From Oceanimonas aquatica (GTDB taxonomy: Bacteria; Pseudomonadota; Gammaproteobacteria; Enterobacterales; Aeromonadaceae), in NCBI RefSeq assembly GCF_030732065.1, contig NZ_JAVBHX010000003.1, positions 186,001-250,000 on the forward strand: DNA of 64,000 nt. The letters are read 5' to 3'. The notes under the pieces are model-generated. The model was not told where the DNA came from. It saw nothing but the letters and a program-made list of their open reading frames with translations, and searched no databases. This document shows positions 1,771 through 15,167 of the stretch, one piece after another (position 1 is the stretch's first letter; each line of letters opens with the position of its first letter). Made by a program: the position numbers and the translations under genes.

Positions 1771-2748
1771 TTACTGTTTATCCACGCCGGCAAGAAAGTC
1801 GAGGGGGCTGTGTGTACCGGCAAAGTGCTGACCGAGCACATGGGTGTAAATCTGAGTGGTGCGCACATCGCTGTGCCCAAGCAGCTCCTGTACGGTTCTG
1901 ATATCGCGGCCGCTTTCAAGCAGGTGAGTGGCAAATGAATGGCGAAAGGTATGGCAACTGATGCGCTTGTTGCAGATGCCGGCCTGACGAACTGCCGCTT
2001 TAAGTGCCCTGCGTGGCACCGAGTCATGCAGATGATGGCGGCAAACCACGCCGGTAACGGGATGTTTGCACAGGCTGACGGACGGGAACACAAACATCCA
2101 GGCCGGTTGACGATAGGCATTAGGGTGTTTTTTGCCAATGGCGTAAGGCAGCGATGGGCCAACACCTTTCAGGTTATCTGCCTGCTGAACCGATAAAGCA
2201 CTCTCTATCTGCCGGTGCAGCAAGCCGTGAAGCCGCTCACTTAACATGGTTTTTCTGTCTTTGTTGCCCTTGCCGTTACGCACGGTAACAGAGCCGTCGT
2301 TAAAGCCAATGTCCTGTACTCTGAGCCGCAGGCATTCGGTGATTCTGAGGCCGCTGCCATACAGCAATGAAAAAATCAGTCGGTTGCGTTCATCCAGGTG
2401 TTTGAGGATTAACGCGACTTCAGCCTGAGTAAGCACAACGGGAAGGCGGCGATATTGACTTGCACGATGAAAATCCAGTTCGCCAAGCTCGATATTCAGC
2501 ACCTTGTGATACATAAAAGCCAGGGCATTAAGGGCGGTTTTTTGCGTGTTGACGGCAACATGGCAATCGGCGGCCAGCCAAGTAAGAAAGCGGCGCACCT
2601 CTGGTGCTCCCATGTCGGCCGGGTGGCGCAGCCGATGAAAGCGAATGAATCGCTTGATCCAGTGCAGGTAGGTTTTTTCAGTTCTCAGACTGTAGCCACC
2701 CAGGCGCAGCTCCCGGCGAATGCGATTCAAAAACGGACTGGCAGCCAT
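1771..2748 (-). CDS. intI: Integron integrase (tyrosine recombinase)
   Basis: The 325-residue protein is a tyrosine recombinase with Arg135 (GSGLRITE), His266-x-x-Arg269 (CHTFRHSF), His292 (LGHSD) and nucleophile Tyr301. Between the first Arg and the HxxR box it carries the extra segment LKGVGPSLPYAIGKKHPNAY (residues 193-212), the patch that separates IntI from XerC/D and lets it bind folded single-stranded attC. It catalyses attI x attC and attC x attC exchange of gene cassettes. The ATG at 2748 is chosen over a longer frame because the protein then begins like known IntI (SPFLNRIRRELRLGGYS) and gggaaa lies before it. The gene points away from the cassette array, as in most integrons, and has a LexA-like box upstream. 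Length matches chromosomal IntI. Confidence 0.95.
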   Translation of the reverse strand: MAASPFLNRIRRELRLGGYSLRTEKTYLHWIKRFIRFHRLRHPADMGAPEVRRFLTWLAADCHVAVNTQKTALNALAFMYHKVLNIELGELDFHRASQYRRLPVVLTQAEVALILKHLDERNRLIFSLLYGSGLRITECLRLRVQDIGFNDGSVTVRNGKGNKDRKTMLSERLHGLLHRQIESALSVQQADNLKGVGPSLPYAIGKKHPNAYRQPAWMFVFPSVSLCKHPVTGVVCRHHLHDSVPRRALKAAVRQAGICNKRISCHTFRHSFATHLLESGRDIRTVQELLGHSDVRTTQIYTHVLGQHFAGTHSPLDFLAGVDKQ

Positions 2749-2769
2749 GCTTTTCCCATTCCACGAATG

Positions 2770-2785
2770 CTGGTTATCTATACAG
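2770..2785 (-). promoter_or_regulatory. LexA-like operator at the intI promoter
   Basis: CTGG-N8-ACAG matches the gammaproteobacterial LexA consensus CTGT-N8-ACAG at seven of eight fixed bases. It lies 22-37 bases upstream of the intI start codon and overlaps a possible -10 (TATACT on the minus strand). SOS control of intI through such a box is established for Vibrio and class 1 integrons; here it is inferred from sequence alone. Confidence 0.6.
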
Positions 2786-2952
2786 TATATTGTAAGCCCT
2801 GAGGTTTGCATGCGCGTTATCAACAACAAGTGCTCGTGTGCAACAGGCAAGGGCAGAAAAGACCAGTAGATAGAAGGGCTTGGGTTATGATGATGTAGAT
2901 AACTAGCAAAGCCGTGTAGATATTGAGCATGCTCATTTTGATCACGGAGTGA

Positions 2953-4799: not shown

Positions 4800-5891
4800 G
4801 TGAAAGAATGGATTAAAAGTAGATTTTTGAAAGTAAACGCCTTTCTCGATAAGAGATACCCAAAGTTTGAGGCGTTATTTACTGATGCTAAAACCGATCA
4901 AGTTGGCTCGTCTCTAAATAAAGTCCTTTTTAAGATCATATCTAGTGCAGTTATTGTCGCTGGATTTTTGCTGGTAATAAACCTGTTACTGATAACTTTT
5001 ACTGATAGAGGTGGAGTGTTTGGCGATTTTTTAGGCGGAGTTCTTAACCCTATTCTTACGTTTTTTACTCTGTTTGGACTAATCGTAACAATTATAATCC
5101 AACGACAAGAGCTTCGCCTCGCTAGGAATGAATACGAAAAAACAGCAGACGCATTAAGTACCTCTGCGATTGAAACTACATTCTTTAATATTATTGATCT
5201 TCACCATAATATTGTTGATAACTTAAAGGTGGATCTTGAGGAGTTAAGTGATAAAGCCGAAGCGCAGAAAGTAATTAAGGGGATATCTTCTTCAATACTA
5301 AAGGCACAAATCGGAGCAAGCTTTGCATCAAAATCTTTAAAAGCTCAGGGCCGTCCCGTTTTCGAAGAAATTCTAAATTATCTTTCTATAGAGGCTAAGT
5401 CGCCAGAGGAATCATTGGAGCGGTATAAGTATATTCAAAACAACCACAACCATATTCTCGGTCATTACTTTAGAAATTTATATCAGGCGCTTAAAGTTAT
5501 CCATAACTACGATGAAGAAAAGCTTCAGCCTGAAGAAAAGAGAAAATATACTAGTATACTAAGAGCTCAGCTATCCACCAAAGAGTTAGCCTTGCTCTTT
5601 ATGAACTGCATTGAGGGCGTGGCTGATAGTGGGCAATTTAAAAACCTATTAATTGAATTTCAAATGCTTGAGCATCTACCTATCTCTGAAATCAATGGAG
5701 GATATTCATTGGCTGGATCTAAAACTCCATTGGCTAGTGATGAAATGTTCCTTCAATATAAACACAAAAAAGATTTAGGCCTTGATCTTCAGAAGTACTA
5801 TGGCGGTGCTTTCGGTCAAAATAGAGGTGTGCCCTATAGTCTACGCCCTAACAAGTCAATCCAGCAGACCGCTGAAGCGGCGGCTGATTGA
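4800..5891 (+). CDS. PutAbiC-type abortive-infection membrane protein (cassette 3)
   Basis: The 363-residue protein matches the putative phage abortive-infection family PutAbiC. Two membrane segments lie at about residues 43-66 and 79-100, the second within GDFLGGVLNPILTFFTLFGL, the family's hallmark. A cytoplasmic helical domain follows with FFNIIDLHHNIV near 127 and NHNHILGHYFRNLYQ near 213, then the RAQLSTKELALLFMNC segment. Members are thought to kill or halt infected cells; the mechanism is unknown. Translation starts at GTG 4800 with agga seven bases upstream. The last dozen or so codons run into the attC hairpin, so the C-terminal tail (QQTAEAAAD) is encoded by attC sequence. AT-rich like the neighbouring cassettes. 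Confidence 0.8.
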   Translation: MKEWIKSRFLKVNAFLDKRYPKFEALFTDAKTDQVGSSLNKVLFKIISSAVIVAGFLLVINLLLITFTDRGGVFGDFLGGVLNPILTFFTLFGLIVTIIIQRQELRLARNEYEKTADALSTSAIETTFFNIIDLHHNIVDNLKVDLEELSDKAEAQKVIKGISSSILKAQIGASFASKSLKAQGRPVFEEILNYLSIEAKSPEESLERYKYIQNNHNHILGHYFRNLYQALKVIHNYDEEKLQPEEKRKYTSILRAQLSTKELALLFMNCIEGVADSGQFKNLLIEFQMLEHLPISEINGGYSLAGSKTPLASDEMFLQYKHKKDLGLDLQKYYGGAFGQNRGVPYSLRPNKSIQQTAEAAAD

Positions 5892-5968: not shown

Positions 5969-6982
5969 ATGCCTGATTTAAACTACCAAAAACAAGCGCA
6001 GGAATTCTATGGAAAGGCACCTGTCATAATTATGGGCAGCGGGGCCTCGGCTGCGCACGGCATGTCAGGGATGGGGGCACTTGCAAAGTATCTCGTGGCG
6101 CACACTGACGTTTCCGGTCTGTCAGCTCCTGAACTGGAGGTCTGGGAAAAGTTCTGCCAGGTTTTGGGCGACGGCGTAGACCTAGAGTCTGCCCTACACC
6201 AGGTAGCAGCTTCTGAAGAACTAACGTCCAGAATCGTTAAAGCTACCTGGGCGCTAATTTACTCTGAAGACATAGAAATCTTTCAGAAGAGTCTTCAGGA
6301 TAATGCGATGTTTCCATTGAGTCGCCTTCTTGAGCATATGTTCAGAAGCAGCCTCAAAAGGATAAATATTATCACTACAAATTATGATCGCCTAGCGGAG
6401 TATGCCTGCGATCAGAGGCGCATTCATCATTACACCGGATTTACGCACGGCTTCTTCCGCCAACTCGCGGCCCCTACAGAAATCACCTCTGCTCGCAGGG
6501 TTAATATCTGGAAGGTCCATGGATCTCTAGATTGGTTTCAGACCCCTCTGGAAGATACTGTAGCCCTCTCAAATATCCAAGGGATACCAGATAACTATCA
6601 ACCGCAGATCGTGACCCCTGGCACTCAAAAATATCAAAAAACACATCTGGAGCCGTTCCGCTCCATTATCAATAACGCTGATCTAGCTATCAATGAAGCT
6701 GGTTCTTACCTTTGTATTGGCTACGGTTTTAATGACGAACATATTCAACCGAAGCTGATGGTGAAGTGCCTTAGACAGAAGACACCTGTAACCATTATTA
6801 CTTATGCGCTTTCTGACTCAGCAAAAAAGCTTATTCTTGATGGTAAAGCACAGAACTACCTAGCAATCGAACGGGGTGAAACAGACGATCAATCCATCGT
6901 CTATTCCTCTCTGGATAAGGATCCGCTTAAGGTAGAAATGAATATCTGGAGCCTTGAAGGCTACCTGTCACTAATCATATAG
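5969..6982 (+). CDS. SIR2-domain NADase of the SIR2-HerA defence system (cassette 4)
   Basis: This 337-residue protein has the SIR2-like NAD-binding signature GSGAS at residues 23-27, TTNYDR with Asn138 and Asp140, and KVHGSLDWF with His184, the residues expected for NAD+ binding and hydrolysis. It lacks the zinc-finger cysteines of deacetylase sirtuins, as in defence SIR2 proteins. In characterised SIR2-HerA (Nezha-type) systems the SIR2 subunits assemble with a HerA hexamer and deplete NAD+ on phage infection. The herA gene starts 10 bases downstream, so they form one operon. The pair starts 73 bases after the cassette boundary. A more distant reading as a general metabolic sirtuin is unlikely given the partner. 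Confidence 0.9.
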   Translation: MPDLNYQKQAQEFYGKAPVIIMGSGASAAHGMSGMGALAKYLVAHTDVSGLSAPELEVWEKFCQVLGDGVDLESALHQVAASEELTSRIVKATWALIYSEDIEIFQKSLQDNAMFPLSRLLEHMFRSSLKRINIITTNYDRLAEYACDQRRIHHYTGFTHGFFRQLAAPTEITSARRVNIWKVHGSLDWFQTPLEDTVALSNIQGIPDNYQPQIVTPGTQKYQKTHLEPFRSIINNADLAINEAGSYLCIGYGFNDEHIQPKLMVKCLRQKTPVTIITYALSDSAKKLILDGKAQNYLAIERGETDDQSIVYSSLDKDPLKVEMNIWSLEGYLSLII

Positions 6983-6991
6983 GAAGAAGAC

Positions 6992-8722
6992 ATGCCGATT
7001 TTTGCATTTGAGGATGAAGAAGCGCTTGGAAAGGTTGCATCAGTCGATACTACAAATGTGATCGTAGAGGTGGAGAACATCGACCAGCTCAAAAGGTTGC
7101 AGGTTAACCATCTCGCTGTGCTGCAAAGCAGCAGACTCGGGCAACACCTCATTGGTCTCATTACACAGGTGACCCGCAAACGTGGCATCGAAGACATTAT
7201 CAATGACGGTATCAACGGCCACGCGCCAGAGTTAAATCTGTGCCGTATCGCCCTGATTGGCACCATGCTGGATCGTGACGGGGAAAAGGAAAACGTATTC
7301 CGTCGTACCCTCGAAAGTGTTCCCGAAATTGACGCGAACTGTTTCTCGCTCGAAGGTGATAACCTCACGGGTTTCATGCGTACCCTTTCAAGCGTATCAG
7401 CCGACGGGAATGCTCTGACTCTCGGTAAATACACGCTGGATGAGCATGCTGTTGCCTATCTAAACGGCAACAAATTTTTCCAACGTCACGCCTTTATTGG
7501 TGGCAGTACCGGTTCTGGTAAATCGTGGACGACTGCCAAAATTATCGAGCAGATGGCGGGACTCGCGACCGCTAACGCTATCGTCTTTGACCTCCATGGC
7601 GAATATGCTCCTTTGGTGGGAGAAGGCATTCAACACTTCAAGGTTGCCGGTCCTGCAGACGTTGAAGCCAAACGTACCATTGATGATGATGTGATTTACC
7701 TTCCTTACTGGCTGCTTTCTTATGAAGCACTCGTGTCCATGTTCGTCGATCGTAGTGACCAGAATGCTCCCAATCAGGCCATGATTATGGCGCGCGAAAT
7801 CAACCGAGCGAAGCAAAAGTACTTGGAGGAAAATGGTCAGCAAGAAGTATTGAAGCATTTCACCGTAGATAGCCCAGTTCCGTTTGATTTAGATGTCCTT
7901 ATGGAGCGACTGAATGAGATCAACGTTGAAATGGTTCCTGGAGCGGGTGGCAGAGAGAAACAAGGTGATTTCTTCGGAAAACTCGCCCGCATGATTTCCC
8001 GTCTTGAGAACAAAATCTCCGATAGGCGTCTTGGCTTTATGTTCAATGGCGGTGGCGGCCTGCTCGATTTCACTTGGCTCGAAAAATTCACTACTGCGGT
8101 ACTCGGGAGCACAGGTGAGAATGGCAAGGCCGGGATTAAAATCATTAACTTTTCAGAAGTTCCTTCGGACGTTCTCCCTTTGATTGTATCTCTGGTAGCA
8201 AGGGTTACGTTCTCGATCCAACAATGGACGCCATCGCAGCTACGTCATCCTATTGCGTTGCTGTGTGATGAGGCGCACCTTTACATGCCACAGCGCAACA
8301 TGGCCGATTCTGCCGACGACATCTCGCTTGATATTTTCGAGCGTATCGCGAAGGAAGGCCGTAAATACGGCGTCAGCTTGGTGGTGATAAGTCAACGTCC
8401 GTCCGAAGTAAATAAGACGATGCTTAGCCAGTGCAGCAATTTTGTATCCATGAGGTTAACCAACGCCGAGGATCAGGGGGTTATCAAACGTCTACTTCCA
8501 GATAGTCTTGGCGGGTTTAGCGACATTTTGCCGACACTCGATACTGGTGAAGCACTTGTTGTTGGCGATGCTAGTCTATTACCAAGCAGGATCAGAATTG
8601 ATGAACCTCAGAATAAGCCAAATAGTGGCACGGTTGATTTTTGGGATGAATGGCAAAAACCAGTCAAAGATAAGCGGTTATCAATTGCGGTTGATAACTG
8701 GCGTAAGCAGAACATTCAATAG
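6992..8722 (+). CDS. herA: HerA-like hexameric ATPase of the SIR2-HerA system (cassette 4)
   Basis: The 576-residue protein has an N-terminal HAS-barrel-like region (residues 1-90) and a FtsK/HerA ATPase core with Walker A GSTGSGKSW at 171-179, Walker B IALLCDEAHLYMP near 425 and the GVSLVVISQRPSEVNKT segment near 466. HerA proteins form hexamers that move DNA; in defence loci they scaffold and activate an effector, here SIR2. Good ribosome binding (aggaagaag) precedes the ATG. It is 10 bases behind the SIR2 gene. The archaeal-style partner NurA is absent, so a role in end resection is unlikely. The gene ends 23 bases before the start of an attC. Confidence 0.9.
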   Translation: MPIFAFEDEEALGKVASVDTTNVIVEVENIDQLKRLQVNHLAVLQSSRLGQHLIGLITQVTRKRGIEDIINDGINGHAPELNLCRIALIGTMLDRDGEKENVFRRTLESVPEIDANCFSLEGDNLTGFMRTLSSVSADGNALTLGKYTLDEHAVAYLNGNKFFQRHAFIGGSTGSGKSWTTAKIIEQMAGLATANAIVFDLHGEYAPLVGEGIQHFKVAGPADVEAKRTIDDDVIYLPYWLLSYEALVSMFVDRSDQNAPNQAMIMAREINRAKQKYLEENGQQEVLKHFTVDSPVPFDLDVLMERLNEINVEMVPGAGGREKQGDFFGKLARMISRLENKISDRRLGFMFNGGGGLLDFTWLEKFTTAVLGSTGENGKAGIKIINFSEVPSDVLPLIVSLVARVTFSIQQWTPSQLRHPIALLCDEAHLYMPQRNMADSADDISLDIFERIAKEGRKYGVSLVVISQRPSEVNKTMLSQCSNFVSMRLTNAEDQGVIKRLLPDSLGGFSDILPTLDTGEALVVGDASLLPSRIRIDEPQNKPNSGTVDFWDEWQKPVKDKRLSIAVDNWRKQNIQ

Positions 8723-8826: not shown

Positions 8827-9168
8827 ATGCCAGCGTACAAGAACCAGAAGAAGACTCGGCAGTACACGAATGAGTTCAAGGTCAGAGCTGTTAGGCTGAC
8901 GCACCTGAGCGGAGCGAGTGTGAAGGGAGTGGCGGAGTCTCTGGACATTCATCCCTTCATGTTGTCACGATGGCGTAAAGAGTACCGAGAGGGAAAGATC
9001 GTGGCGGATAAACGCAGGAAAGCTGAGAGTAAGCCGAAGGTCCTGAGCGAAAACGAACGGATCCGAAAGCTGGAAAAGCAGGTTGCTGACCTGAAGGAGG
9101 AAAACGACCTGCTAAAAAAGTGGCAACGGTTTCTCGCGGAGGAACGCAAGCGCGGTTCCAGTTCGTAG
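8827..9168 (+). CDS. IS3-family OrfA (helix-turn-helix DNA-binding subunit)
   Basis: The 113-residue protein has an N-terminal helix-turn-helix of the transposase_8 type (residues about 8-55, with VKGVAESLDIHPFMLSRWRK) and a C-terminal leucine-zipper coiled coil (IRKLEKQVADLKEENDLLKK). OrfA binds the element's ends and multimerises. The A AAA AAG heptamer at 9114-9120 is in the correct phase for a -1 slip into orfB, giving the full OrfAB transposase. A good ribosome binding site (gaggtgag) precedes the ATG. Confidence 0.92.
   Translation: MPAYKNQKKTRQYTNEFKVRAVRLTHLSGASVKGVAESLDIHPFMLSRWRKEYREGKIVADKRRKAESKPKVLSENERIRKLEKQVADLKEENDLLKKWQRFLAEERKRGSSS
9114..9120 (+). promoter_or_regulatory. 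Programmed -1 frameshift site of the IS3 transposase
   Basis: A AAA AAG sits in the orfA zero frame as X XXY YYZ, in the overlap of orfA and orfB. Slippage of one base back joins the two frames. Confidence 0.75.
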
Positions 9169-10007
9169 CTCAGCACCGTGCTCGCTATGGTGTACGTTGT
9201 TTGTGTCGCTTTCTGAAGGTATCTGCCAGTGGCTTTTATGCTTGGCTGCAACGTAAAACGAGCCAGCGTGACCAGGCCAATGCGGAGCTGATAGAGCAAA
9301 TAAAACGGGTTTTCACTGCCAGCAGAGAAACTTATGGAAGTCCGAGGGTGCATCAAGCCCTGAAGCGACAAGGCATTCATGTCGGCAGAAAGCGTGTTGA
9401 GCGGCTGATGCGGGAAGCCGGATTGAAAGCGCGCGTCGCCCGGGTTTATCGCAAGGTGGCTGGCCTGCACCGCTTTTATCAGAAATCGGTAAACCTACGT
9501 AAAGACCAGCCAAAGCCGACTGCTCCCAATCAACATTGGACAGCCGATCTGACCTACATCCGAGTTGGCTCTCGCTGGCTGTACCTTGCCGCAGTCATCG
9601 ACCTGTATTCTCGTCGTGTCGTGGGATGGTTACTGGGTAAGCGTAAAACGGTATCTCTTACGCAAGCATCTCTGCAGATGGCGTTGAGAAACCGCCGGCC
9701 GGAACCTGGTCTGATCTTCCATACGGATCGAGGAGTCGAATATCGTGCTCATGAGTTACAGCGCTTGCTGATACGACACGGGATCAGAGCCAGTACTAAT
9801 CGGCCGGGTATGTGCACTGACAACGCAGAGATGGAATCGTTTTTCCATACCCTGAAGGGTGAGCTGATTAAAGAAAACCGTTTTCATGGAGAGATGCATC
9901 TGCGGGATAAACTGGCCGGATACATCCAGCATTTTTATAATCGATTTCGACTGCACTCAAGTCTGAATTATATGAGTCCAGTCGAATATGAAGCCCTGGT
10001 GGCGTAG
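9120..10007 (+). CDS. IS3-family OrfB (DDE integrase core)
   Basis: The 295-residue frame contains the IS3 HTH_21 region (GSPRVHQALKRQGIHVGRKR near residue 73) and the rve/DDE core: the first Asp in HWTADLTYI, the second in IFHTDRG and the catalytic Glu in DNAEMESFFHTLK. It is in the -1 frame relative to orfA, so the main active product is the OrfAB fusion; a separate OrfB could start at GTG 9120. No internal stop or deletion is seen, so the element could still move. Confidence 0.93.
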   Translation: MATVSRGGTQARFQFVAQHRARYGVRCLCRFLKVSASGFYAWLQRKTSQRDQANAELIEQIKRVFTASRETYGSPRVHQALKRQGIHVGRKRVERLMREAGLKARVARVYRKVAGLHRFYQKSVNLRKDQPKPTAPNQHWTADLTYIRVGSRWLYLAAVIDLYSRRVVGWLLGKRKTVSLTQASLQMALRNRRPEPGLIFHTDRGVEYRAHELQRLLIRHGIRASTNRPGMCTDNAEMESFFHTLKGELIKENRFHGEMHLRDKLAGYIQHFYNRFRLHSSLNYMSPVEYEALVA

Positions 10008-10044: not shown

Positions 10045-10117
10045 ATAACACGTGGGCTCCCGTCACTTCGTTCCGTATTATAGCTACGTGTTACTGTCCC
10101 TTCTTGGGGCGTTAGCC
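10045..10117 (+). other. Right half of an attC, with crossover core
   Basis: The segment ends CTTGGGGCGTTAGCC, with the core GTTAGCC at 10111-10117, and begins the HNH cassette. Its inner arm (TTGGGG) does not complement the left half at 8746-8771 (CGCATG), so the two halves probably came from different attC sites brought together through the IS. Confidence 0.65.
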
Positions 10118-10132
10118 GTATTAAGGATGAGT

Positions 10133-10513
10133 ATGAAACCTGATGATATAGTGGAACAACTTTTAGCTACTGGATTATGGGGAGAACCCGACGCTAGTAT
10201 GGGGTTAGCGGCAGATTTTAGATGCCAATATTGTGGTAAAGATTTACTTGCCTCTGTTGATAATTACAAAGAATGGCAAACAGATCATTTGGTTCCATCA
10301 AGTAGTGGTGGTTTAGATGAAATTAGTAATTATGTTATTTGTTGCAGAACCTGTAACTTTATAAAAGGTCGTTGGAATCCACAAAGCGAGTACGTAGGTG
10401 TAATACCAACAAGAGAACAATTAATTATATCTGCTAAAAAGTATATTTCTGAAAAGCGTCATGAAAATGAAAGCGTAGTTCATGAGCTAAGAAAGATAGT
10501 TGGTCGTATATAA
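10133..10513 (+). CDS. HNH endonuclease (cassette 5)
   Basis: The 126-residue protein has CQYCG near residue 31, TDHLVPSSSGGLDEISNYVI and CRTCNFIKG, that is two zinc-binding CxxC pairs round the DH...N..HNH-type metal finger (here D-H, N and N positions). Such small HNH proteins cut DNA and occur in phages, mobile elements and defence loci; the target is unknown. The ATG at 10133 is chosen because aagga precedes it by five bases; an ATG six bases upstream is in frame but overlaps that site. It begins 21 bases after the cassette boundary. Low GC, unlike the host. A restriction-type or anti-phage nuclease role is an inference from context. Confidence 0.85.
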   Translation: MKPDDIVEQLLATGLWGEPDASMGLAADFRCQYCGKDLLASVDNYKEWQTDHLVPSSSGGLDEISNYVICCRTCNFIKGRWNPQSEYVGVIPTREQLIISAKKYISEKRHENESVVHELRKIVGRI

Positions 10514-10740: not shown

Positions 10741-11604
10741 CTAGCTGTCACGCTCTGCTTGTGTGAGCGGCTGTGGGTTGCGAATACGATGTTTGCGGGA
10801 AAAGGTCCCGTTTTCCGCTTTCTCCACCTGTTTAAGCGCAGACTCGGCTACGGATGCAGGCGAGGCCAGGCCGAGTGCCTGCAACGCTGCTTCCGCGCTG
10901 GCTGCCCGTGCTTCAAAGGCGTGCAAAGCGGTCAGGGTCTTTTCATCGAGGCGACCCTTGAACTCGAAGTACTTCAGTCGCGGATAGCGGCCTGCCAGTG
11001 CCACTCCCCAGTTAAGGGCAGGGTTCCACCATGAGTTGATTTCACGCCCTTTGCCGGTCTGGTGCTGCGCTATCACGTCATCCAGTGCGCCGTTCAGCAG
11101 TTTCAGGTCGAAGTCGGTGCCTGGTACAGGGGCATCACCATAGGCGTTAACGCCGGTTTTTGAGGGGCCGGTGCGGGTATCGCGATAGCGGGCGAGGGTC
11201 ATCATGTCGCTTGCCAGCACGGGTTCGTTCACCGGCAGGCGAACCGCCTCGGGGTCACCCATCAGCTGGCCCCAGGACATACGAATAAAGGTGTGCTGAT
11301 CTTCCATGCCGGGATGGGTGCATCTCAGGCCAATGGCATAGGCTTCCAGGTCTTCCTGCATAAACTGAAATCCGGTGTAGCGGGCCCAGCGCACCACGAG
11401 AAACTCATGAGGCGCGGCGCCGGGCAGATGAAAGTTCACCTCCTGCAGGTAGTCCTGCACTATTCGCACCTGTTCGTCCGACAGCTCAATATCCTCATGC
11501 AGCGGATACATACCTTCAAAGGTGTTGCGCACCGGTCTGGGTCGCGCGGCCATGTAAGCATCCAGCTCGGCCTGGGTACGTGGCCGTGTTTTTTTCAGGG
11601 TCAT
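10741..11604 (-). CDS. Unrecognised 287-residue protein of the molybdopterin oxidoreductase operon
   Basis: I do not recognise this family. The protein looks soluble, has no signal peptide and no clear metal motif; it is rich in Arg, Glu and aromatic residues (SWGQLMGD, SWWNPALNWGVALAGRYPRL) and has a mixed C-terminal helix (residues about 225-265). It begins 30 bases after the cytochrome b/molybdopterin gene and is the third gene of that minus-strand operon, so a role in assembling, electron-coupling or substrate handling for that enzyme is the natural guess. Nothing in the sequence shows it directly. Confidence 0.65.
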   Translation of the reverse strand: MTLKKTRPRTQAELDAYMAARPRPVRNTFEGMYPLHEDIELSDEQVRIVQDYLQEVNFHLPGAAPHEFLVVRWARYTGFQFMQEDLEAYAIGLRCTHPGMEDQHTFIRMSWGQLMGDPEAVRLPVNEPVLASDMMTLARYRDTRTGPSKTGVNAYGDAPVPGTDFDLKLLNGALDDVIAQHQTGKGREINSWWNPALNWGVALAGRYPRLKYFEFKGRLDEKTLTALHAFEARAASAEAALQALGLASPASVAESALKQVEKAENGTFSRKHRIRNPQPLTQAERDS

Positions 11605-11634: not shown

Positions 11635-13152
11635 TCAGATCAACTGGTTGCGGTCGAAGAAGTCGGTGTCCTCAAAGTAGCCACCGCGGCCTTCAAGGAT
11701 AATGTCGTAGCGGTTAACCACCTCAATACGTTCCAGCCACTTCAGGCTGCGAAATCCGGTTGAGGTTTCCAGGCGCAGCCGCACCGGCGCGCCATTTTTG
11801 GCCGGGATCTCGCCTTCGTCATTAAGCTCAAAGGCAATCATTGTCTGGGGCATGCGCGCTTCAACCATGGGGGTGGACTCGTAGTAGGTTCCCCCCTCAT
11901 ACAGGGCATCATCGCGGCCCATGTTCTGAAAGCTGGTGTACACCACGTCGGTCGCGCCGGGCAGGGGCCGAACCAGATCCAACAGGTCCGACACGGTAAT
12001 GCCGCGCCAACGCCCAATCGAGCTGAAGCCCTGCACACAGTGGTGCAGGGTGGTTTGTGAGTGGCCCGCGGCAAGCTCGCGCAGCTCTGCAAGGGTCAGC
12101 GTCATCGGGCGTTCAACGTAACCCCCAATCTCAAGTACGTAGTCGTCCTCAAAGCAGTTGGCCATCAGTGCCAGGTACTCGGGGGTTTCTGGTGGCCGTC
12201 CGCTGCCACGGAAGTTGTGGGTGGCGTTATCAAGCCCCACGTCTTTGCCTGTGATATTGGAGCGGTCGTAATGCATGCGCGCGGGCAGTTTGTACAGCAG
12301 ATTCGACCATGGCCGTACAATCCGGTTATGCAACTTCTCAACGGCACGGCCGTCCGCCAGGGTCCAGCGCGTGGCAACCACATGCAGAGCAATAACGAGA
12401 GCGAGGCCGAGGGTGAAAATGACGCCGCCTAAAACCGGGTTGTTGGAGTGGCCCAACACCATTTTTGAGGTTTCGTGCAGGTAGCCGTGAAGAAAGACCA
12501 GGGGCAGGTGGACGGCAAAGAAGGCGACATAGCCAACCAGGCACAGAAAGTGCGTGCTGCGGATCACCTGGCGGCCACCAAGCAGTCGGGTAATGCGTGA
12601 AAAATGGTTGGCAATGGCCGGAGACTGAAAGGCGCCGGTCAGAATGACCAAAGGCGTGAGTATTAATACCACAAAACCGTAAGAGAGTTGCTGCAGGGCA
12701 TTAAACACCATGCCATCGGCGGGGTGGGGCATGGTGAAGGCAAGGTAGGCCAGCATATCGTGGCCCGCCTGAGCAAAGGTGTCCCAGCTGGTGGGCACAT
12801 AGCGCCGCCACTGACCAGTAACCAGCAGTAATACAAAGTAAATGACCCAGCAGCTAACAAAGCCGGTAACGGTCATAAAGTGCCAGTAACGCCCCAAACC
12901 CAGCAGGCGATGCCCGGGGAGGGAAATACGGGGAGAGTAGTCACTGTCTTCGCCGCCCACCGTGTAGTATTTGTGCTTGGGCTCTTGCTGAACCGTAAAC
13001 TTGGCCCAGGATGAGCCAGGCACAGTGTGCTGGGAGCGGTAAAGCTTGGGGTAGGTACCCAGAATCTCCAGGCCCGAGCGAACAAGAAACGAAATAAAGA
13101 TGATGTTGAGGAAGTGCTCCACACGAAGCCACCACGGAAATCCGAGATCCAT
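11635..13152 (-). CDS. Cytochrome b561-molybdopterin oxidoreductase fusion
   Basis: The 505-residue protein joins an N-terminal membrane di-haem cytochrome b domain (residues 1-265; helices with candidate haem ligands His13, His91, His201 and His214) to a C-terminal sulfite-oxidase-fold molybdopterin domain (residues about 330-490). Cys372 in HHCVQGFSSIGRWRGI is the expected molybdenum ligand, corresponding to the active-site Cys of sulfite oxidase and MsrP. No Tat signal is present; the catalytic domain follows the last membrane helix. Electrons would pass between the quinone pool and the molybdenum centre. The substrate is unknown; the usual arrangement splits these into two proteins (MsrP/MsrQ), so the fusion is notable. 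Confidence 0.85.
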   Translation of the reverse strand: MDLGFPWWLRVEHFLNIIFISFLVRSGLEILGTYPKLYRSQHTVPGSSWAKFTVQQEPKHKYYTVGGEDSDYSPRISLPGHRLLGLGRYWHFMTVTGFVSCWVIYFVLLLVTGQWRRYVPTSWDTFAQAGHDMLAYLAFTMPHPADGMVFNALQQLSYGFVVLILTPLVILTGAFQSPAIANHFSRITRLLGGRQVIRSTHFLCLVGYVAFFAVHLPLVFLHGYLHETSKMVLGHSNNPVLGGVIFTLGLALVIALHVVATRWTLADGRAVEKLHNRIVRPWSNLLYKLPARMHYDRSNITGKDVGLDNATHNFRGSGRPPETPEYLALMANCFEDDYVLEIGGYVERPMTLTLAELRELAAGHSQTTLHHCVQGFSSIGRWRGITVSDLLDLVRPLPGATDVVYTSFQNMGRDDALYEGGTYYESTPMVEARMPQTMIAFELNDEGEIPAKNGAPVRLRLETSTGFRSLKWLERIEVVNRYDIILEGRGGYFEDTDFFDRNQLI

Positions 13153-13165
13153 TGATAAAGCCTTG

Positions 13166-13699
13166 TCAGTCTAAAAAGTGTTGGTTGTCGGGAGCGGCGA
13201 CGATCATGCCATAGCGCAGTGCCCCAAAAAGCACCATGTATGCCAGGGAGGCCAGCAGCGTGAGGTTCCAGATGGCGGCGGAAACAACACTGGCCCCGTT
13301 CCAGACGTAGGGCGCATTGCCCAGCAGGCCGCCAAGGTAGATCAGCAGTGAAAGCAGTGCGATGAGCAAGCCCCAGGTCCAGATGCGGGCAGAGGTCATT
13401 AAACCCACGGCAACGAACAGGGCTGCAGCCCCGAACACACTCCACAACGCCTGGGTCGCGAACAGAAAGGGCTCATGGTTGGATAACGCAACAGACGCGG
13501 AAGCCCCGCCGATAACGGCAATGACCGCGATAAGCAGCAGACGGGTGGTGCGCGGCAGGTTGATGCGAATGTAGCGCAAAAACGGAGCGCGCTTTTTGCC
13601 CGGTTTTATGTGCTCAAGCACTGGCTGAGTCGCGTTTGGGGTGCCCCGAAAGTCTACCCCGGCGCGCAGCGCAGGGGAGTTTTCGTCTTCCATTGCCAT
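13166..13699 (-). CDS. Membrane protein of the molybdopterin oxidoreductase operon
   Basis: The 177-residue protein has a hydrophilic N-terminus of about 48 residues and then four hydrophobic helices (about 53-70, 80-103, 107-128 and 138-163). It is the first gene of the operon, 13 bases ahead of the cytochrome b/molybdopterin gene, with a strong ribosome binding site (ggagg) before ATG 13699. I do not recognise a named family; it could be a membrane anchor or an extra subunit. No metal ligands stand out. Confidence 0.75.
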   Translation of the reverse strand: MAMEDENSPALRAGVDFRGTPNATQPVLEHIKPGKKRAPFLRYIRINLPRTTRLLLIAVIAVIGGASASVALSNHEPFLFATQALWSVFGAAALFVAVGLMTSARIWTWGLLIALLSLLIYLGGLLGNAPYVWNGASVVSAAIWNLTLLASLAYMVLFGALRYGMIVAAPDNQHFLD

Positions 13700-13823: not shown

Positions 13824-15167
13824 ATGAGTAAAATTAAAATCTACGGGATAACGATGAAAGTGTTTGCATGGATAGGTATTTCGTTATTGATATTGGTTGC
13901 TGCTTATTGTTTGGTGGTGTTTGCTTTCTCTTCTTATGTGAGCAGCCCTGGTTCATATAACGCTACTGCTTATAACAGCAAGCTGAGTAATCAGTATTAC
14001 AAGCAGGATGGAAAAGTCATTTATGTGCTGGATGGTAACTTTTTTCAGGTTGGAGGCACAGAAGTAGCAGGAGCGGATCCTGATACGTTTACGGTAATAG
14101 ACAAGTTCTACGCCAAAGATAGCAACAACATCTATTACAACGGTGAGCCTGTTGCAGGTGTCAGCCCTGGATCAGTAACGTCTGTTGCACTTGGATTTGA
14201 TAAAAAAGCTGTCGATACGGGTTACCTTATCAGTAATGAAAAGGTCTTTTGCTACGGTGAGGTCATTGCAGGCGCTGACGCGGAATCTTTCCTTTACCTT
14301 CATGGTTCCTACTCCATGGATAAGGATTATCTGTATCACTACATTGATAATAAAACTCCGCTTACAACAAAACCTGCAGCTATTTCCAGGGCCAACGACC
14401 GCTACATCAGGCATGGTGAACAGGTGTTGTATCTCGGAAAAGTGATCAGTCATGACGCCAGCAGTTTTAACATTATTGATGACGAATACGCCAAAGATGC
14501 ACTCCATGTTTACTCTAATGGTGACTTTGTTGAAGGCATGGTGCCCGAGGGTTTTACTGTTATCTCGCCTTATTACAGAAAAGATAAAAATCAGGCTTAT
14601 TACTTTAATACGCCCATTCCTGACAGTGATCCTGCCAGCTTCAAGGTGCTGAATAATGCCGTTTCAAAGGATAAGAGTAATGTTTATTATAATGGCTATA
14701 TTGTTGAAAACAAAAAACCATTGGAAGTAGCGCGCTCTGAAGCTGATGATCTGCAAAAATTATGGAAGTGGAGAGCACTACACCTGAACGCGACCACTGT
14801 GATACTGGTTCCCAGTGACGATGTTACAGATATTACCAACGATTATTATGTCTATAACAATGAAGTTTATTCCAGAGCTGAAAAGCTGGCTGGCATTAAT
14901 CCTGAGGATGTTATCGTTCTGGATGAGAATGACAAGGCATTTGTCCGCATAGATGATCAGGTGTTTTATTATGGTACTGTTATTTCAGGTGCAGATCCAA
15001 AAACCTTTACTGTCATCTCGAATCGTTTTTCAAAAGATGCCAGTCACGTGTATTGGAGCGAGCACAGAGTAACAGATGCCAACCCAGCAACCTTTGAATA
15101 TAAAGATAATTTGTATGCAGGTGAAAACGAAGCGGGTGAGTATGTTTTAAAAATGGCGGAGTATTAA
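13824..15167 (+). CDS. DKNYY-repeat protein with N-terminal membrane anchor
   Basis: The 447-residue product has one hydrophobic segment near residues 11-33 and then a long array of DKNYY-family repeats: units of roughly 40-50 residues such as FYAKDSNNIYYNGEPVAG and RFSKDASHVYWSEHRV, each with K/D-x-x-x-V/I-Y-Y. DKNYY proteins are surface-type proteins of unknown function. The second Met (13854) gives a signal-anchor start directly and may be the true one; neither start has a strong ribosome binding site. It is more AT-rich than its neighbours and stands alone, which suggests recent acquisition. Confidence 0.8.
   Translation: MSKIKIYGITMKVFAWIGISLLILVAAYCLVVFAFSSYVSSPGSYNATAYNSKLSNQYYKQDGKVIYVLDGNFFQVGGTEVAGADPDTFTVIDKFYAKDSNNIYYNGEPVAGVSPGSVTSVALGFDKKAVDTGYLISNEKVFCYGEVIAGADAESFLYLHGSYSMDKDYLYHYIDNKTPLTTKPAAISRANDRYIRHGEQVLYLGKVISHDASSFNIIDDEYAKDALHVYSNGDFVEGMVPEGFTVISPYYRKDKNQAYYFNTPIPDSDPASFKVLNNAVSKDKSNVYYNGYIVENKKPLEVARSEADDLQKLWKWRALHLNATTVILVPSDDVTDITNDYYVYNNEVYSRAEKLAGINPEDVIVLDENDKAFVRIDDQVFYYGTVISGADPKTFTVISNRFSKDASHVYWSEHRVTDANPATFEYKDNLYAGENEAGEYVLKMAEY

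What the first reader, a model, noticed from the sequence alone, without database searches (positions are those of the whole stretch)
11635..13152. Single-chain cytochrome b561-molybdopterin oxidoreductase with unknown partners
The usual enzyme pairs a separate molybdenum subunit with a membrane cytochrome; here both are in one 505-residue chain lacking a Tat signal. The catalytic Cys372 is present. The flanking four-helix protein and the unrecognised 287-residue protein form one operon with it, so a novel respiratory or detoxifying complex is possible.
Basis: partly seen in the sequence, partly recalled or inferred. Interest (0 to 1): 0.5.

Follow-up and report, generated by a model that had tools for sequence, protein, structure and literature searches.

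The report
Upside-down membrane molybdenum enzyme in mobile operon
This bacterium carries a travelling three-gene operon whose main protein joins a membrane cytochrome to a molybdenum-enzyme domain, and its charge pattern suggests that it sits upside down compared with its two-part relatives, putting the active site inside the cell instead of outside.

Summary
In detail: one 505-residue chain holds a b561-type cytochrome and a sulfite-oxidase-family molybdenum domain with Cys372, in an operon with a 177-residue four-helix protein and a 287-residue protein of no known family. The same three genes in the same order occur in 24 of 24 related loci that reach all three, in Pseudomonadota and Actinomycetota, at up to 90% DNA identity between bacterial families, mostly with unrelated flanks: a horizontally moving cassette. 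The fusion belongs to a wider, ~35%-identical fused family. Its nearest non-fused homologues are two-gene pairs whose molybdenum subunit has a twin-arginine signal (27 of 27 examined, lipobox in 26). Loop charges give opposite orientations: positive bias in 27 of 27 split cytochromes and three E. coli controls, negative in 32 of 32 fused rows. The fused rows lack the twin-arginine before helix 5 of the known Sco3746-type fusion. I conclude that the molybdenum domain most likely faces the cytoplasm, with the cytochrome inverted, exchanging electrons with quinone. Substrate, electron direction and partner roles stay unknown. New variant of a known kind; topology is inferred, not measured.

The parts
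13166..13699 (-). first gene of the operon: 177-aa protein, four predicted membrane helices after a ~50-residue N-terminal part; no family
   Evidence: alignment A4 of 25; found in 6 of 120 relatives, the same six genomes that hold the fusion at over 90%
11635..13152 (-). 505-aa fusion of a five-helix b561-type cytochrome and a sulfite-oxidase-family molybdenum domain
12457..13140 (-). Ni_hydr_CYTB (cytochrome b561) domain, residues 5-232; candidate haem ligands His13, His91, His201, His215
   Evidence: Pfam; the four His in 32 of 32 fused rows
12379..12435 (-). fifth membrane helix (residues 240-258), absent from the split cytochromes; joins the cytochrome to the molybdenum domain; no RR/KR/RK pair before it
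11710..12150 (-). molybdenum domain (Oxidored_molyb, residues 335-481)
   Evidence: Pfam; PDB sequence match to 1xdq, E 1.7e-12 with the family profile
12037..12039 (-). codon of Cys372, presumed molybdenum ligand
   Evidence: invariant in 32 of 32 fused rows; aligned with a Cys of 1xdq
10741..11604 (-). third gene of the operon: 287-aa protein without an evident signal or membrane helix (by eye and in the model), no recognised family or fold
   Evidence: in 1 of 398 Pseudomonadota genomes, the window's own

Best explanation
The operon codes a quinone-linked, membrane-bound molybdenum oxidoreductase whose active site faces the cytoplasm. The b561 part carries two b haems (by their places in the helices, His91/His201 towards the molybdenum face and His13/His215 towards the other). 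It is inserted with its N-terminus outside, the reverse of its split relatives and of HyaC, FdnI and CybB. The extra fifth helix brings the chain back to the cytoplasmic face, where the molybdenum domain folds and takes up cofactor without needing Tat. Electrons pass between substrate, Mo (Cys372), two haems and quinone; the direction is not known. The 177-aa membrane protein and the 287-aa soluble protein are constant partners, most simply an extra membrane subunit and a cytoplasmic subunit or assembly factor. Shown by computation: domains, conserved residues, operon, opposite charge bias, no Tat motif, cross-phylum spread. Inferred: the orientation itself, haem pairing, quinone as partner, roles of the two small proteins.
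For: Both domains above Pfam cut-offs; haem His and Mo Cys invariant in 32 of 32 fused rows. Charge bias (K+R in odd minus even loops, plus = N inside): fused -5 to -15 in 32 of 32; split +7 to +15 in 27 of 27; controls HyaC +10, FdnI +18, CybB +5 (their N-inside orientation is recalled). Four fused relatives with an extra first helix score +10 to +15 overall, which again puts the shared core N-outside. No basic pair between helices 4 and 5 in 32 of 32 fused rows; RR in 27 of 27 split Mo subunits and a lipobox in 26 of 27 by a loose pattern. Helix 5 is the most hydrophobic of the five by Kyte-Doolittle in the window protein (2.43), unlike the weak Tat-dependent helix 5 of Sco3746 (PMC5449189, passages). 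The 287-aa partner shows no signal or membrane helix. The own genome holds MoaA and TatC.
Against: Positive-inside is a rule, not a measurement. When only 8 residues per helix end and the first four helices are counted, the two groups overlap (fused -3 to -1, split -2 to +2); they separate narrowly at 12 residues (fused up to -3, split down to -1). Many fused rows are near copies: 7 fused and 20 split representatives remain below 70% identity. Loop 1 is long, where the rule is weaker. By a rough insertion-energy scale helix 5 (-0.49) is second to helix 2 (-1.08). Positive charges after a last helix also occur in Tat-exported Sco3746. The AlphaFold model of the fusion is poor (mean pLDDT 44) and cannot support docking. 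Inverting a homologous cytochrome would be an unusual event.
Confidence: 0.6

Rival explanations
1. The fusion keeps the ancestral orientation (N inside, molybdenum domain in the periplasm) and exports the folded domain through Tat by a non-canonical signal before helix 5, like Sco3746.
For: Homologous split Mo subunits have Tat-type signals; Sco3746 shows that five-helix Mo fusions can be Sec-Tat dual targets and also carry positive charges after helix 5.
Against: No RR, KR or RK between helices 4 and 5 in 32 of 32; charge bias opposite in 32 of 32; helix 5 hydrophobic; relatives with an extra N-terminal helix fit the inverted core better.
Confidence: 0.2
2. It is a cytoplasm-facing, quinone-linked sulfite dehydrogenase, doing for the cell what SoeABC does with a different enzyme type.
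For: Sulfite-oxidase-family domain; a cytoplasmic face would suit sulfite made inside the cell (SoeABC recalled; only a search listing seen).
Against: Scores to SorA (41.4, cut-off 600) and SoxC (27.2, cut-off 420) are far below threshold; no sulfur-metabolism family among the 25 commonest families printed for 113 flanking ORFs.
Confidence: 0.2
3. It is a reductase fed by quinol (S-oxide, N-oxide or oxyanion), a cytoplasmic counterpart of MsrPQ.
For: Among NCBIfam models the molybdenum domain is nearest to MsrP (56.3 bits), and so are the split relatives L074 and L012 (110.9 and 76.5 bits) and the fused relatives L060 and L063 (66.9 and 86.3 bits).
Against: All below the 207-bit MsrP cut-off; partner is b561, not MsrQ; substrate pocket not modelled.
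Confidence: 0.3
4. The cytoplasmic molybdenum domain has lost catalysis and works as a redox sensor or structural part.
For: Partners are unknown and no family occurs in more than 4 of 113 flanking ORFs.
Against: Cys372, the G-x-P-x-R and K-W residues and four haem His are invariant in 32 of 32 rows from several phyla.
Confidence: 0.05

Closest known systems
Two-gene cytochrome b561 + Tat-type molybdenum subunit pairs (unnamed; e.g. Paraburkholderia plasmid NZ_CP099644, L066; L069-L087, L089-L096)
   Same: Both domains homologous; the window's cytochrome region is 24-34% identical to 20 split representatives; the four haem His are kept in 28, 28, 27 and 27 of 28 rows labelled split, the 28th (L088) being a cut-short fused gene; Mo domains join in one tree
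   Different: Separate genes; four helices; N-inside charge bias; Mo subunit with twin-arginine and mostly a lipobox
Sco3746-type polytopic Mo-cofactor protein (Tooke et al. 2017, PMC5449189; abstract, section 9 and passages read)
   Same: One chain, five helices, predicted haem-ligand His, C-terminal molybdenum domain
   Different: Conserved twin-arginine directly before helix 5, N-inside, C-terminal part exported by Tat; His reported in helices 2, 3 and 4, here in 1, 2 and 4. Its sequence was not compared here
MsrPQ (YedYZ)
   Same: Molybdenum domain of the same Pfam family; nearest NCBIfam model
   Different: Below the MsrP cut-off; MsrP is periplasmic with a Tat signal and MsrQ is a ferric-reductase-type membrane protein (both recalled), not b561
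SorA/SorT/SoxC sulfite dehydrogenases
   Same: Same molybdenum domain superfamily
   Different: All far below their cut-offs; no dimerisation-domain hit in Pfam
HyaC / FdnI / CybB cytochromes b
   Same: Four-helix b-type cytochromes compared here as controls; their membership of the same Pfam family is recalled
   Different: Those have N-inside bias; here opposite

Membership tests
Sulfite-oxidase-fold molybdenum proteins (Pfam Oxidored_molyb) | domain score above cut-off | tested here: met
   91.6 bits against 24
Sulfite-oxidase-fold molybdenum proteins (Pfam Oxidored_molyb) | Mo-ligating Cys | tested here: met
   Cys372 invariant in 32 of 32; aligned with a Cys of 1xdq
Sulfite-oxidase-fold molybdenum proteins (Pfam Oxidored_molyb) | bound molybdopterin and activity | not testable with these tools
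   needs protein
Cytochrome b561 / Ni_hydr_CYTB | domain score above cut-off and haem-ligand His | tested here: met
   43 bits against 30.1; His13, 91, 201, 215 in 32 of 32
Cytochrome b561 / Ni_hydr_CYTB | N-inside orientation as in HyaC, FdnI, CybB | tested here: not met
   charge bias -13 for the window protein against +5 to +18 for the controls; a prediction only, and not a condition of the Pfam family
Sco3746-type dual Sec-Tat Mo protein | twin-arginine directly before helix 5 | tested here: not met
   0 of 32 have RR, KR or RK there
Sco3746-type dual Sec-Tat Mo protein | five helices and C-terminal Mo domain | tested here: met
Sco3746-type dual Sec-Tat Mo protein | weakly hydrophobic helix 5 | tested here: inconclusive
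Sco3746-type dual Sec-Tat Mo protein | sequence relation to Sco3746 | not tested
   its sequence was not fetched
MsrP | NCBIfam NF003767 cut-off of 207 bits | tested here: not met
   56.3 bits
MsrP | Tat signal peptide | tested here: not met
   no RR in the first 60 residues of the window protein
SorA / SorT / SoxC | NCBIfam cut-offs | tested here: not met
   41.4 (cut-off 600), 17.2 (570), 27.2 (420) bits

The most novel reading that the evidence does not exclude
A single event fused a Tat-exported molybdenum subunit to its cytochrome and turned the whole electron-transfer unit upside down, so that the same Mo-haem-haem-quinone wire now serves a cytoplasmic substrate without Tat; one branch gained two unknown partner proteins and spread as a mobile cassette from Actinomycetota into marine Pseudomonadota.
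Probability: 0.5. Interest if true: 0.65.

Novelty: new variant of a known kind. Interest (0 to 1): 0.5.

Why it matters
If true, homologous respiratory modules exist in both membrane orientations, and fusion plus inversion is a second evolutionary answer, next to the Sec-Tat handover of Sco3746, to the problem of tying a cofactor-bearing domain to a membrane cytochrome. It makes a clear prediction that simple reporter fusions can test, and it names two protein families (177 and 287 aa) that I found only with this enzyme.

Tried and rejected
Structure: AlphaFold of the 287-aa protein gave mean pLDDT 67 and no PDB fold match (best E 0.27); of the fusion, pLDDT 44, molybdenum domain not modelled, so I ran no fold search with it. 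Profile searches of the PDB with the 287-aa and 177-aa families found nothing credible (best E 0.53, and no match). A weak Pfam match of the 287-aa family to AF_0587-like_pre-PUA (19 of 25 members, best E 0.029) and of the 177-aa family to RhaB_D2 (8 of 25, best E 0.0041) were judged chance. Gene neighbourhood: among 113 flanking ORFs no family occurs in more than 4 (25 of 113 families are printed), so no substrate hint. Plasmid tblastn with the 287-aa protein: no match at E 0.01. Literature: searches returned no paper; two searches listed 7 papers each, of which, by title and start of abstract, only Tooke et al. bears on such a fusion; Sco3746 is in two papers. The promoter and terminator scan gave fewer sites than shuffles.

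Full report
What is there. The window holds a three-gene operon on the minus strand: a 177-aa protein (13166-13699), the 505-aa fusion (11635-13152) and a 287-aa protein (10741-11604), with gaps of 13 and 30 bases. The fusion carries Ni_hydr_CYTB (residues 5-232) and Oxidored_molyb (335-481), both over Pfam's cut-offs; the 287-aa protein matches no Pfam or NCBIfam family, and the 177-aa protein only DUF2070 at E 0.28, far below cut-off. The fusion has five hydrophobic helices, near residues 14-32, 93-111, 156-174, 203-221 and 240-258. The genome has two other Oxidored_molyb proteins, by eye an MsrP-like and a SoxC-like one, two other Ni_hydr_CYTB proteins, and MoaA and TatC.

The operon is real and travels. 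A scan of genome contigs gave 25 loci. In 24 of 24 that reach all three genes the order 177-fusion-287 is kept; L059 ends inside the fusion; in L045 a transposase gene lies between the second and third genes. Hosts are Pseudomonadota (Oceanimonas, Oceanisphaera, Marinobacterium, Marinobacter, Halomonas, Marinomonas, Denitrificimonas and others) and Actinomycetota (Humibacillus, Ornithinimicrobium, Mobilicoccus, Actinomycetaceae). Fusion identity to the window in the 24 is 58-96%. DNA identity over most of the operon is 90% to Oceanimonas (L054), 90% to Marinobacterium (L035; another family), 84% to Denitrificimonas (L044) and 74% to Humibacillus (L049); operon G+C departs from the flanks in several hosts (0.57 against 0.44 in L044 and L052) but not in all (for example L035 and L056). 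Of the 23 genomes of the window's genus listed, 6 have it at over 90%, and G017 has a 36% relative instead. The 177-aa gene is found in 6 of 120 relatives, those same six genomes; the 287-aa gene in 1 of 398 Pseudomonadota genomes, the window's own, and in no plasmid record at E 0.01. Flanks are shared between close relatives (L041 and L042; the DKNYY gene in the window and L054), and 7 Actinomycetota loci share a ~95-aa membrane protein; otherwise nothing recurs consistently. Some loci and G genomes seem to be the same genomes, judged from matching coordinates; by the same token the window's genus takes in Oceanimonas and Oceanisphaera.

Wider family. Among 265 plasmid records with a match, 24 of the 40 listed rows are single-piece fused relatives at 31-37% identity, in Rhodococcus, Curtobacterium, Variovorax, rhizobia, Corynebacterium, haloarchaea and others; the neighbours of the seven that I looked at differ. 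In 398 Pseudomonadota genomes 55 have a match at E <= 1e-30; two are full-length fused (own and G326), one (G505, L088) is a cut-short or interrupted fused relative, and the 27 other loci that I examined are two-gene pairs of cytochrome and molybdenum subunit. So the split form is the commoner one there.

Orientation. All 27 split molybdenum ORFs have RR within 70 residues before the domain and 26 match a lipobox pattern (both patterns are loose, but the sequences look like Tat signals by eye): hence periplasmic. Charge bias, K+R in odd minus even loops, is +7 to +15 for 27 of 27 split cytochromes and +10, +18 and +5 for HyaC, FdnI and CybB, whose N-inside orientation I recall from the literature; for the fused form it is -5 to -15 in 32 of 32 rows, -13 in the window. 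The 32 rows are the window, the 24 loci, six plasmid relatives and L011, which was cut to start at its core. A 28th row labelled split, L088, was left out because it is the cut-short fused gene. Of the two other Ni_hydr_CYTB loci of the own genome, L105 gave a likely protein with +6; L106 passed no filter of the script. Four fused relatives have an extra first helix and score +10 to +15 overall, which puts the shared core the same way round as in the short ones. Between helices 4 and 5 none of 32 fused rows has RR, KR or RK. Two of 32 fused rows have an RR in their first 60 residues (L062, L065), not the window protein. The result weakens when only the first four helices and short loop ends are counted: at 8 residues the groups overlap, at 12, 15 and 25 they do not. 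Only 7 fused and 20 split rows are below 70% identity. In both forms the molybdenum unit would lie on the face of loops 1 and 3 of the cytochrome, so the electron path could be kept while the whole unit is flipped; the fifth helix is what a fusion needs to reach that face. This last step is inference.

Phylogeny. In a tree of 65 molybdenum domains, the 33 fused rows form one side of a branch (92/90, not starred), the 25 cassette rows a clade (100/100), and Actinomycetota rows lie at its base with the 17 Pseudomonadota rows nested inside (91/86, not starred). Three MsrP rows stand apart (100/100) and serve as outgroup, the drawn root being at the midpoint; L065, L012 and L063 have long branches, and the bootstrap had not settled. 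A single fusion from a split ancestor and a later move from Actinomycetota to Pseudomonadota fit, but are not proven.

Against known systems. Tooke et al. 2017 (PMC5449189; abstract, section 9 and passages read) describe Sco3746, a five-helix Mo-cofactor fusion with two predicted b haems; export of its C-terminal part, tested with reporters, needs Tat, guided by a conserved twin-arginine directly before helix 5. The present family has the five helices and the domain but not the motif. I did not compare sequences. Inverted homologous membrane proteins are known in other families, for example YdgE/YdgF and YdgQ/YdgL (PMC3962082, passages). My searches found no paper on this fusion beyond Tooke et al.; the library lacks most subscription journals.

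Function. NCBIfam scores put the domain nearest to MsrP, but far below its cut-off, and further from SorA, SoxC and SorT. No neighbour family that I saw suggests a substrate. I commit to a quinone-linked, cytoplasm-facing molybdenum oxidoreductase, leaning slightly to a reductase; the orientation carries about 0.6, the chemistry much less.

Noticed in passing
window 5969-8722 (+): A SIR2-like gene (5969-6982) and a HerA helicase gene (6992-8722) side by side match PADLOC SIR2 and HerA models strongly: a likely SIR2-HerA anti-phage defence pair.
   Followed up: partly
window 4800-5891 (+): Putative AbiC-type phage abortive infection protein (Pfam putAbiC).
   Followed up: no
window 1771-2850 (-) and 8827-10007 (+): A phage-type integrase and an IS3-like transposase pair near the operon, so a mobile or defence island may adjoin it.
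   Followed up: no
window 10052-10513 (+): Small HNH endonuclease whose HNH part resembles those of Cas9d and IscB, below their cut-offs.
   Followed up: no
window 13824-15167 (+): DKNYY-repeat protein beside the operon, kept at the same place in L054 (76% identity).
   Followed up: no
L048, L049, L053, L055-L058: Seven Actinomycetota loci carry one or two ~95-aa membrane proteins near the operon; none clustered with them in the proteobacterial loci. The one copy scanned has no Pfam match.
   Followed up: partly
L045:7838-9280: A DDE transposase gene sits between the fusion and the 287-aa gene, whose frame stays open from residue 18 of the window protein on.
   Followed up: partly
fusion residue 257 (window 12382-12384): His257 in helix 5 is invariant in the 25 cassette rows but not in the wider fused family; possibly a ligand or quinone-site residue.
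   Followed up: no
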